Of a DNA stretch of 64,000 nt, positions 17,337 through 20,099 are shown piece by piece. The DNA lies in the NCBI RefSeq assembly GCF_001045445.1, contig NZ_LFNF01000002.1, positions 558,001 to 622,000 on the forward strand, written 5' to 3'. Numbering within the stretch: position 1 is the stretch's first letter; every line of letters begins with the position of its first letter. The notes under the pieces were generated by a model. The model searched no databases, was not told the DNA's origin, and saw only the letters and a list, made by a program, of their open reading frames with translations. A program made the translations under genes and the position numbers. The DNA is from Chryseobacterium sp. BLS98 (GTDB lineage Bacteria > Bacteroidota > Bacteroidia > Flavobacteriales > Weeksellaceae).

Positions 17337-18467
17337 ATGGCTGTTTATATCTTAAGCAATCGTAAGATCGTCCGGCATAAGGGCGAAAAAGCAGATTCAT
17401 TTTCCAGTGATGAATACTCTATTCCCAATTTCAGGATCGCCAAATGTAATTTTGACACCTACAAAGAGCCTACGGCTGCCGCCAAAAAGGAAAAAGATTA
17501 TACCAACCGTAATATATTAGATTACAAATTATTTTCCGAGCCCGAAAAACAGGGCTATGAGGAAGTACTGGAAGTCCTGCAGAACGAAAAAGGCATTAAA
17601 AAATCTACGCTGACGGCCAATAATCTTGGCGGAACACAGAGAATGTTTTATGAGCTGTATAAAAATATGTCCTCTACCAAAGACAGAAGTGATGTCCTGA
17701 TTTTTATTCATGGATATGCTTATGATTTTGATGATGAACTCAAGGCCATCATTGACCTTAAAAAACTGTACATAGACCATCCTGAATCACCTGTAGAACA
17801 TATTCTTTTTGTAAGCTGGCCTGCTTCGAGCAGCCTTGTACCACTGACTTATTTCGATGATAAGGCTTCAAGCATTAATTCAGGATCATCGCTGATGAGG
17901 CTTTTCTATTTTTACACCCAGTTTTTAAAGGACATTTTTTCAAACCGCGATCTGGCTCCTTGCAATCAAAGAATTCACCTCATGGCTCATTCCCTTGGAA
18001 ACAGAGTTCTTCAAAGCATGCTGTACAGCCTTAAGAGGGAAAATATTCTGCGTGTTATTGATCAGGTCCTGCTGTTAAACGCTGATGTATCCTATAAGGT
18101 TTTCGAAGATTCTGAAGATTCATATAATAAGCTTCCCCTGTTGGCCAACCGTATTTCCATTTACCTGAACAGAAAGGATACTGTATTGGGAATCTCTCAA
18201 TTTACCAAGAATATCCTTACCCCAAGATTAGGCAAGAACGGTCCAAGTGATATTGAAAAGTTAAAAGATATTGTTTCTGTTATCGACTGCACTTTTGTAG
18301 AGGATGATATTCTGAACAGCTTTAAGTATGAAGTGGGAAACCATTGGGGATATCTTTCCAGCTCTGTGGTACAAAAAGATATTTTTCAGAATTTATATGG
18401 AATTGATAGAAATTTAATCACAGTAAGATTAAAAAATAACGAAAATATTTTCACAATTATTTCTTAA
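17337..18467 (+). CDS. DUF900-type alpha/beta hydrolase
   Basis: 376 residues, no signal peptide, so cytosolic. The alpha/beta hydrolase core starts near 118 with DVLIFIHGYAYDFDDELKA (oxyanion strand and HG at 125-126). The nucleophile elbow is LMAHSLGNRVL with Ser219; a strand with an Asp follows (LLLNADVSYKVF), and His343 (VGNHWGYLSS) could be the catalytic His. The pattern fits the DUF900 family of esterase-like proteins, whose substrates are unknown. Four tandem 12-bp repeats lie upstream (17237-17283). It is followed by 450 bp with almost no coding capacity. Confidence 0.75.
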   Translation: MAVYILSNRKIVRHKGEKADSFSSDEYSIPNFRIAKCNFDTYKEPTAAAKKEKDYTNRNILDYKLFSEPEKQGYEEVLEVLQNEKGIKKSTLTANNLGGTQRMFYELYKNMSSTKDRSDVLIFIHGYAYDFDDELKAIIDLKKLYIDHPESPVEHILFVSWPASSSLVPLTYFDDKASSINSGSSLMRLFYFYTQFLKDIFSNRDLAPCNQRIHLMAHSLGNRVLQSMLYSLKRENILRVIDQVLLLNADVSYKVFEDSEDSYNKLPLLANRISIYLNRKDTVLGISQFTKNILTPRLGKNGPSDIEKLKDIVSVIDCTFVEDDILNSFKYEVGNHWGYLSSSVVQKDIFQNLYGIDRNLITVRLKNNENIFTIIS

Positions 18468-18657: not shown

Positions 18658-18917
18658 AAATGAATGTTAACCCATAAACAAGAAGTTTATCCGAGCCTAA
18701 TATTACTTTATCTCTAATTTGACACATGAAAATACCTTCTATTACAATTTAGAAGCAGTTTTTCATATTTATACTTTTTCAAAATTGTTCGTAAAATAAG
18801 ACTTTAACCTCGGAATTAAATCCTATTGGAGTGAATTTAGTTAATTAAAGTTAAATTCTTGTGAAATAAAAAAAAGAGATTGATATTTACTTACCAAACA
18901 AATTAAAATCTTTTATT

Positions 18918-19085
18918 ATGAAACACATGAGAAAACTTAACAAGTCAGATTTAAAAGTTATCAAAGGAGGAATTGTTCCTATTGGATGCAACAGTTGGGA
19001 TCCCAAACTCAGATGTTGCAGATCATGGGATGCTGAGCATGCGGGTAGCCCAACCTGTGCAGATTCTCCTCCTTCATTTGCATAG
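18918..19085 (+). CDS. double-glycine leader peptide, bacteriocin/RiPP-like precursor
   Basis: 55 residues. Residues 1-18 (MKHMRKLNKSDLKVIKGG) are a typical Bacteroidota double-glycine leader: charged helix with L7, L12 and I15, then GG at 17-18 where a C39 peptidase would cut. The 37-residue core begins IVPIGCNSWDP and has four Cys (24, 33, 34, 47) and a repeated C-x-S-W-D motif (24-28 and 34-38). Two disulfides or thioether rings are possible. No modification enzyme, C39 transporter or immunity gene is nearby, so export would need genes elsewhere. A second ATG at 18927 could also be used. The next gene (menC) is convergent, its stop 9 bp away. Confidence 0.75.
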   Translation: MKHMRKLNKSDLKVIKGGIVPIGCNSWDPKLRCCRSWDAEHAGSPTCADSPPSFA

Positions 19086-19094
19086 CTATTAAAG

Positions 19095-20099
19095 CTATAT
19101 TTTGAACCATAACAACTCATTTCTGAGTTCCAGACTTGATTCAAAATTATTTACAAATAGAGATCCGGTGCCCAATCCTTGCGGCATCGGATTTTTCTTT
19201 GTGAATGTATATTGCGCAATAGCATTGAGCCCTACATTACTTTCGAGAGCGGAGGTGATCCACCAGCCGATATTCTGCTCTTCCGCAAGAAAAATCCACT
19301 CATCTGAACCTGAAAAACCTCCTACCAGAGCAGGCTTTAAAATAATATATTGTGGCCTGATGGTTTCTAAAAGTTCTTTCTTTTCAGCAGGATCAGTAAT
19401 CCCAATCAGTTCTTCATCCAAAGCAATCGGCGTAGGAGTTCCGGCACACAATGAGGCCATATCATTCCAGTTCCCAGCTTTTATCGGCTGCTCAATAGAA
19501 TGAATATGAAGATCTGCAAGCTGCTTCAAAACAATCTCTGCCTCTTCCCTGCTGAATCCGCCATTGGCATCTACCCGAAGTTCCAGCTCATCTTTTGAAA
19601 ATTTTGTTCTTAATTCCTGAAGGATTTTGTGCTCAGATTTCCAGTCAACTCCAATTTTCAACTTAATACAGTGAAATCCCAATTGAAGCTTTTCCCTGAT
19701 CTGTTCTTCCATATAATGAATATCTCCCATCCAAATCAGTCCGTTGATCATAATAGATGCTTTTCCTTCAGTAAATTCACTTGGAAAATACAGATGATCC
19801 CCATGCTTCAGATTTAAAACTGCCTGTTCATATCCAAACCATATTGAAGGAAATTCTATCAGTTGTTCTTTCAGATAGTGATCATCCTGATCGATATTAT
19901 CACACAACCACTGCAGCTTTTCTTCATAATCCGGCCTGTCATCAAAACTTAGTCCTCTGAAAACAGCACATTCACCTGTACCTTTCTTTCCGCTTTCCTC
20001 AACTTCGAAAATAAAGGTTTCTTTTTCATGCAAAACGCCACGAGATGTTCCGCTCGGGCGTTTGAATTCTAATAAATATCTGAAATATTTTGCTGTCAT
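19095..20099 (-). CDS. menC: o-succinylbenzoate synthase
   Basis: 334 residues, enolase superfamily, muconate-lactonising subgroup. The catalytic lysines are in CIKLKIGV (Lys146, Lys148) and ILKPALVGG (Lys255). The Mg ligands are Asp177 (RVDANGG), Glu203 (SIEQPIK) and Asp228 (ALDEELIG). The enzyme dehydrates SHCHC to o-succinylbenzoate in menaquinone synthesis, in the cytosol. The start ATG overlaps the stop of fbp by one base (TAATG), so translation is probably coupled. No other men gene is in the window. Confidence 0.9.
   Translation of the reverse strand: MTAKYFRYLLEFKRPSGTSRGVLHEKETFIFEVEESGKKGTGECAVFRGLSFDDRPDYEEKLQWLCDNIDQDDHYLKEQLIEFPSIWFGYEQAVLNLKHGDHLYFPSEFTEGKASIMINGLIWMGDIHYMEEQIREKLQLGFHCIKLKIGVDWKSEHKILQELRTKFSKDELELRVDANGGFSREEAEIVLKQLADLHIHSIEQPIKAGNWNDMASLCAGTPTPIALDEELIGITDPAEKKELLETIRPQYIILKPALVGGFSGSDEWIFLAEEQNIGWWITSALESNVGLNAIAQYTFTKKNPMPQGLGTGSLFVNNFESSLELRNELLWFKI

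What the first reader, a model, noticed from the sequence alone, without database searches (positions are those of the whole stretch)
18918..19085. Orphan double-glycine peptide with four cysteines and a doubled C-x-S-W-D motif
The sequence shows an 18-residue GG leader followed by a 37-residue core with Cys 24, 33, 34 and 47 and two copies of C-x-S-W-D. GG leaders are established signals for C39-peptidase ABC exporters. No exporter, modification or immunity gene is near, so this is an orphan precursor. The doubled motif is not one I know from described RiPP or bacteriocin classes.
Basis: partly seen in the sequence, partly recalled or inferred. Interest (0 to 1): 0.72.

Follow-up and report, generated by a model that had tools for sequence, protein, structure and literature searches.

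The report
Exported cysteine-rich peptide of Chryseobacterium
A small gene makes a peptide with a removable export tag and a compact core that is probably held by sulphur bridges; relatives occur across the genus Chryseobacterium and the machine that probably exports them lies elsewhere in the genome, which points to a large, unstudied set of secreted bacterial peptides.

Summary
The ORF is real: 55 aa, an 18-aa double-glycine leader and a 37-aa core with Cys 24, 33, 34, 47 and two C-x-S-W-D copies. It belongs to a conserved family: 128 intact genes from 96 Chryseobacterium genomes, with P21, C24, W27, C33, C34, W37 and C47 invariant in 112 of 112 distinct sequences. The conserved unit is a doubled C-x2-W (112 of 112); literal C-x-S-W-D twice occurs in 9 of 112. 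121 of 128 genes lie beside one MenC-like gene, some in tandem arrays. It is an orphan only locally: the genome holds 30 other GG-type small peptides that I read and five C39 exporters. One exporter locus combines VKOR-thioredoxin, GG peptide, C39-ABC and HlyD. In a sister genus a doubled C-x2-W-D peptide lies at that same exporter locus (ABC 88% identical). Best reading: cargo of a shared, disulphide-forming C39 export station, in trans. Its action outside the cell is unknown: bacteriocin-like is plausible, but purifying selection and a fixed locus leave a signal or other role open. A new core family of a known kind.

The parts
18918..19085 (+). GG-leader precursor peptide gene, 55 aa plus stop
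   Evidence: relatives
18918..18971 (+). 18-aa leader MKHMRKLNKSDLKVIKGG, predicted C39 cleavage after GG
   Evidence: NF047798 matched below cut-off; 9 of 18 residues identical to the leader of the peptide in the own VKOR/C39 exporter locus
18972..19082 (+). 37-aa core; predicted mature peptide, monoisotopic mass 3972.78 reduced, 3968.75 with two disulphides
18987..19001 (+). first motif copy, C24-N-S-W-D28
   Evidence: C24 and W27 invariant in 112 of 112 distinct relatives
19017..19031 (+). second motif copy, C34-R-S-W-D38, with C33 directly before it
   Evidence: C33, C34 and W37 invariant in 112 of 112
19056..19058 (+). C47, invariant C-terminal cysteine
18859..18890 (+). promoter-like element TTG (18859-18861), N20, GATATTTAC (18882-18890), ending 27 bases before the ATG
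   Evidence: 86 of 130 upstream regions (two of the 130 are not family members) carry TTG-N17..24-A[TC]ATTTA, 0-3 in ten shuffles; relatedness not corrected
17337..18467 (+). upstream neighbour, DUF900 alpha/beta hydrolase
19095..20099 (-). downstream convergent neighbour, MenC-like enolase-superfamily protein; conserved flank of the locus

Best explanation
The gene encodes a secreted, disulphide-stabilised peptide that is cargo of a shared export station acting in trans. (1) It is transcribed alone from its own promoter (inferred from the conserved element). (2) The GG leader is recognised and cut by a C39-peptidase ABC exporter encoded elsewhere, most likely that of the C1:251-257 kb locus of this genome (inferred: like leaders, and a sister-genus relative at the equivalent locus). 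(3) The VKOR-thioredoxin of that locus oxidises the cysteines, giving two disulphides (three in six-Cys relatives), most likely C24-C34 and C33-C47 (inferred; the connectivity is a guess). (4) Outside, the core acts as one of a repertoire of about thirty peptides; its most likely role is bacteriocin-like action on related Bacteroidota (about 45%), then signalling or another conserved extracellular role. The confidence given is for steps 1-3. It was lowered from 0.72 to 0.70 after a partial count was replaced by a full one.
For: P21, C24, W27, C33, C34, W37, C47 invariant in 112 of 112. Cys number even in 111 of 112; the extra pair is present together in 52, absent together in 59, split in 1. 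Core dN/dS about 0.10 against 0.23 for the leader. Five C39 places in the genome. Own locus L083: VKOR-thioredoxin, GG peptide, C39-ABC, HlyD. Of 95 genomes of the genus with both a listed VKOR and a listed C39 place, 78 have a pair within 5 kb. Of nine VKOR loci read in the genus (L083, L085, L217-L221, L224, L225) eight hold a GG-type peptide and eight the C39-ABC; the three own C39 loci without VKOR (L082, L084, L086) showed no such peptide. In three sister-genus genomes a doubled C-x2-W-D peptide lies directly upstream of the ABC (two) or one GG peptide away (one); ABC 88%, HlyD 66%, VKOR 43-44% identical to the own proteins. None of the 12 VKOR-less genomes is among the 116 that match this peptide (Fisher p 7e-7). 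In one search, as far as its listing shows, 0 of 134 genomes of the genus with a profile match and 11 of 15 without lack VKOR (p 1e-13).
Against: No exporter or oxidoreductase is linked to the gene itself in the Chryseobacterium MenC loci read in 18-19 kb, so the pairing is in trans and inferred. The sister-genus peptide has moved cysteines and may not be a strict orthologue. 17 of 95 genomes show no listed VKOR-C39 pair within 5 kb (the listings are capped). The VKOR association is not corrected for shared ancestry, many profile matches are leader-only, and only up to 22 candidates per genome were scored there. The two AlphaFold models are of low confidence and disagree (pLDDT 66 and 54). This leader is below the NF047798 cut-off. 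Independent gain of the extra Cys pair was not significant (two supported pairs). No expression or activity data.
Confidence: 0.7

Rival explanations
1. Function rival: a class II bacteriocin (microcin-like) whose main role is to kill close competitors, as bacteroidetocins do, without a dedicated immunity gene.
For: GG leader, four Cys, C39-ABC plus thiol oxidoreductase in the genome; bacteroidetocins come with an ABC/peptidase and a thiol oxidoreductase, and their producers inhibit their own growth, which the authors take to mean no immunity protein (PMC6671954 passages). Tandem arrays with differing cores and decayed copies.
Against: Core under strong purifying selection, one locus in 92 of 96 genomes, acidic and hydrophilic core (pI 5.4, GRAVY -0.32). 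That weapons usually vary and move more is general knowledge, not a call.
Confidence: 0.45
2. Function rival: a secreted signal (pheromone-like) or another conserved extracellular peptide of the producing cell itself.
For: One locus, purifying selection on the core, own conserved promoter element, no immunity-like gene among the direct neighbours.
Against: No sensor gene among the direct neighbours; up to six different intact paralogues in one genome would be unusual for one signal.
Confidence: 0.3
3. A RiPP precursor whose core (for example the tryptophans) is modified by a radical SAM or other enzyme in trans.
For: A radical SAM match lies beside the C39 place at C5:16-18 kb; weak TIGR04149 hit (13 bits, cut-off 25).
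Against: TIGR04149 cut-off not met; no modification gene among the direct neighbours; the extra Cys pair behaves like a disulphide.
Confidence: 0.1
4. A relic whose leader is no longer used, or a spurious ORF.
For: Leader scores below the NF047798 cut-off.
Against: Few non-synonymous changes among close relatives; conserved in 96 genomes.
Confidence: 0.03

Closest known systems
Chryseobacterium 'bacteriocin-like protein' leader class (NCBIfam NF047798, leader_Chryseo)
   Same: Same leader type; 34 of 36 aligned relatives match at E <= 0.01, 5 of 7 tested singly exceed the cut-off.
   Different: The model covers 18 leader positions only and says nothing of the core; this peptide scores 13.8 bits, cut-off 23.5.
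Bacteroidetocins (PMC6671954; section 14 and passages seen)
   Same: GG-leader, mostly four-Cys peptides of Bacteroidota with a peptidase-ABC and, in most regions, a thiol oxidoreductase; no immunity protein apparent.
   Different: Leaders of 15-16 aa, mature peptides of 42 aa (42-48 in the nearest relatives), genes clustered with the export genes. Here 18 and 37 aa and export genes elsewhere. Core sequences were not compared (figures not held).
CCPGW family putative bacteriocin (NCBIfam NF047792)
   Same: GG leader; 14 of 36 relatives match weakly at E <= 0.01, best E 0.00022.
   Different: No hit for this peptide; best 18.5 bits among seven relatives tested singly, cut-off 80.
Class II bacteriocins of Gram-positive bacteria
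   Same: Leader type and size; weak Pfam PF10439 Bacteriocin_IIc matches in 11 of 36 relatives, best E 0.015.
   Different: No YGNGVxC motif of class IIa (motif as in PMC6671954); only PDB sequence match is carnobacteriocin B2 at E 0.73.
Chryseoviridins, graspetides of Chryseobacterium (PMC8939145, passages seen)
   Same: Same genus; several tandem precursors per locus.
   Different: Encoded with ATP-grasp enzymes; neither direct neighbour here is one.

Membership tests
NF047798 leader_Chryseo | score at or above 23.5 bits | tested here: not met
   13.8 bits for this peptide; 5 of 7 relatives tested singly are above it
NF047792 CCPGW family | score at or above 80 bits | tested here: not met
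   no hit for this peptide; best 18.5 bits among seven relatives
TIGR04149 rSAM-modified RiPP | score at or above 25 bits | tested here: not met
   13 bits
Bacteroidetocin | GG leader of 15-16 aa, mature peptide 42-48 aa | tested here: not met
   18 and 37 aa (family values)
Bacteroidetocin | four cysteines (A, B and nearest relatives) | tested here: met
   among relatives four in 59, six in 52, five in 1 of 112
Bacteroidetocin | gene beside peptidase-ABC, membrane protein and thiol oxidoreductase | tested here: not met
   no C39 match in the window; met for the sister-genus relative
Bacteroidetocin | kills Bacteroidota | not testable with these tools
   needs peptide
Substrate of a C39-peptidase ABC exporter | GG-type leader | tested here: met
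   L12, G17, G18 invariant, I15 near-invariant (a G followed by G, A, S or N was forced by the extraction)
Substrate of a C39-peptidase ABC exporter | C39-ABC in the same genome | tested here: met
   five places; 169 of 173 genomes of the genus
Substrate of a C39-peptidase ABC exporter | leader cut after GG | not testable with these tools
   needs mass spectrometry
Class IIa bacteriocin | YGNGVxC motif | tested here: not met
   sequence

The most novel reading that the evidence does not exclude
This is a well-conserved member of an undescribed Bacteroidota secretion system: one VKOR/C39 export-and-oxidation station that serves dozens of scattered, separately expressed disulphide peptides in trans, with the doubled C-x2-W core as a new peptide fold kept at one chromosomal locus, perhaps as a conserved signal rather than a weapon.
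Probability: 0.3. Interest if true: 0.72.

Novelty: new variant of a known kind. Interest (0 to 1): 0.5.

Why it matters
It turns an 'orphan' peptide into a testable system: a named exporter-oxidase locus, a genus-wide cargo family with fixed cysteines and tryptophans, and natural four- and six-Cys versions. If confirmed, one bacterium would secrete about thirty different disulphide peptides through a shared station, a large pool of unexplored bioactive peptides.

Tried and rejected
Pfam and NCBIfam show no model of the core; what they show are weak, mostly leader-side matches. PDB by sequence: only carnobacteriocin B2 at E 0.73. Foldseek with the weak model: five matches at E 7.5-9.8, none at E <= 0.001. 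AlphaFold of the full peptide (pLDDT 66, strands over both motifs) and of the core alone (pLDDT 54, a short helix, no strands) disagree, so no fold is claimed. A degenerate C39-like domain at the N-terminus of the VKOR protein: hhalign probability 2.3%, P 0.021, inconclusive. Independent gains of the extra Cys pair: 4-5 changes on a weak tree, two supported pairs, not significant. A shared promoter regulon: the element before this gene is not found in the same form before the 30 other own GG-type peptides (four have looser matches). The exact C-x-S-W-D repeat as functional unit: rejected (9 of 112). Outside the genus: at E <= 1e-6, 24 of 395 genomes of the order match, one of them (G363, not inspected) outside the genus. 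A count of VKOR-C39 neighbours made on a hand-picked part of the listing (55 of 58) was biased and is replaced by the count over all rows listed. Literature: searches gave none or papers on other peptide classes; nothing on this peptide was seen in the listings.

Full report
What is there. Window 18918-19085 (+) is a 55-codon ORF with an 18-aa double-glycine leader and a 37-aa core with Cys 24, 33, 34 and 47 and two C-x-S-W-D copies. It lies between a DUF900 hydrolase (17337-18467) and a convergent MenC-like gene (19095-20099). A promoter-like element, TTG-N20-GATATTTAC, ends 27 bases before the ATG. A looser form of it occurs in 86 of 130 upstream regions of the extracted set (two of the 130 are not family members) against 0-3 in ten mononucleotide shuffles; relatedness was not corrected.

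A conserved family. A search with the peptide matches 116 of 173 genomes of the genus at E <= 0.01. From loci of these I extracted 130 ORFs by pattern, dropped two that are not relatives, and kept 128 genes from 96 genomes, 112 distinct. Of the 20 matching genomes without such a gene, three have only decayed or truncated copies (G003, G025, G116), seven have a sister subfamily (G010, G031, G056, G111, G141, G147, G150), and ten with weak matches were not inspected. L12, G17, G18, P21, C24, W27, C33, C34, W37 and C47 are invariant in 112 of 112. The pattern forced a G followed by G, A, S or N, a Cys with an aromatic residue three later, and a second Cys (C33) with an aromatic residue four later; it did not force L12, P21, C34, C47 or Trp over Tyr or Phe. 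A relaxed scan of the same loci found 10 more distinct ORFs, none with the doubled motif. Literal C-x-S-W-D twice: 9 of 112; C-x2-W-[DN] twice: 59; C-x2-W twice: 112.

Cysteines. Four in 59, six in 52, five in 1 of 112. The two extra cysteines are present together in 52, absent together in 59 and split in 1, as expected of a disulphide. On a weak tree they changed 5 and 4 times, with only two supported independent pairs, so this is not significant. The sister subfamily (for example APACCLSWNPVLRECRRWDYSCLNP) keeps the two motif cysteines, lacks C33 and C47 and has two others; from this I infer, without proof, C24-C34 and C33-C47.

Locus and selection. 121 of 128 genes, in 92 of 96 genomes, lie within 6 kb of the MenC homologue; the seven elsewhere are all six-Cys. 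77 genomes have one intact copy, 12 two, 4 three, and one each four, five and six. Multi-copy sets are tandem in the loci read (for the larger ones), except in G066, G112 and G171, whose two copies lie at separate places. Pooled over 650 related pairs dN/dS is 0.10 for the core and 0.23 for the leader; the pairs are not independent and core dS (1.24) is near saturation.

A repertoire and its exporter. The NF047798 leader model matches 40 places in the own genome at E <= 10, 18 over its cut-off. I read 30 further GG-type small ORFs there, with differing, mostly Cys-rich cores; one more place (L009) gave no peptide. The genome has five C39 places. One, at C1:251-257 kb, is VKOR-thioredoxin, GG peptide, C39-ABC, HlyD. 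In the genus 161 of 173 genomes have VKOR and 169 of 173 C39. Over the 150 VKOR and 150 C39 rows that I copied from the capped listings, 95 genomes have both, and 78 of these have a pair within 5 kb (median 1.4 kb); 31 VKOR rows in such genomes have none. Of nine VKOR loci read in the genus (L083, L085, L217-L221, L224, L225) eight hold at least one GG-type peptide (not L217) and eight the C39-ABC (not L221); the scan of the three own C39 loci without VKOR (L082, L084, L086) showed no such peptide. None of the 12 VKOR-less genomes is among the 116 matching ones (Fisher p 7e-7). In one search, by my count of its listing, 149 genomes of the genus were examined: 134 match the family profile, none VKOR-less; 15 do not, 11 of them VKOR-less (p 1e-13). 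Many of those matches are leader-only, at most 22 candidates per genome were scored, and shared ancestry was not corrected.

The link in a sister genus. A fourth genome of that genus (G251) matched the profile but was not read. This is the strongest evidence that such cores are cargo of this station. In eleven Chryseobacterium loci of the sister subfamily read (6-11 kb) no exporter was recognised among the long ORFs.

Compared with what is known. Bacteroidetocins (PMC6671954, section 14 and passages) seem to work in a similar way but have shorter leaders, longer cores and linked export genes; membership is not met. A later paper names BamA as their target in its title (PMC8546649, search listing only). 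NF047798 is not met by this peptide, though met by 5 of 7 relatives. No family model of the core, no significant PDB sequence match and no fold match was found. The core family seems undescribed in the open-access papers searched; most subscription papers are not in that library.

What remains open. Secretion, cleavage, disulphides and function are not shown. I slightly favour a bacteriocin-like role, but the fixed locus and the purifying selection speak against a fast-evolving weapon, and a signal or other extracellular role stays possible.

Noticed in passing
own genome C1:251-257 kb (L083:6108-11564): VKOR-thioredoxin, GG peptide, C39-ABC and HlyD in a row; candidate shared export and oxidation station.
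   Followed up: yes
own genome, loci L007-L048: 30 further GG-type, mostly Cys-rich small peptides with differing cores, scattered over the contigs.
   Followed up: partly
L226:7355-8655, L227:10873-11745, L228:6283-7028: Three to five further GG-type peptides between the ABC and HlyD genes in the sister genus.
   Followed up: no
L086 (own C5:14-18 kb): Radical SAM match beside a C39-ABC: a possible separate RiPP locus.
   Followed up: no
L145, L107, L122 and others: Sister subfamily genes lie between an argS-like gene and SusD/TonB-receptor-like genes (names recalled from the N-termini, not from a call).
   Followed up: partly
L073 and L077, upstream regions printed: Terminator-like inverted repeats (CTCCAATGCC...GGCATTGGA then T) between tandem copies, seen by eye.
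   Followed up: no
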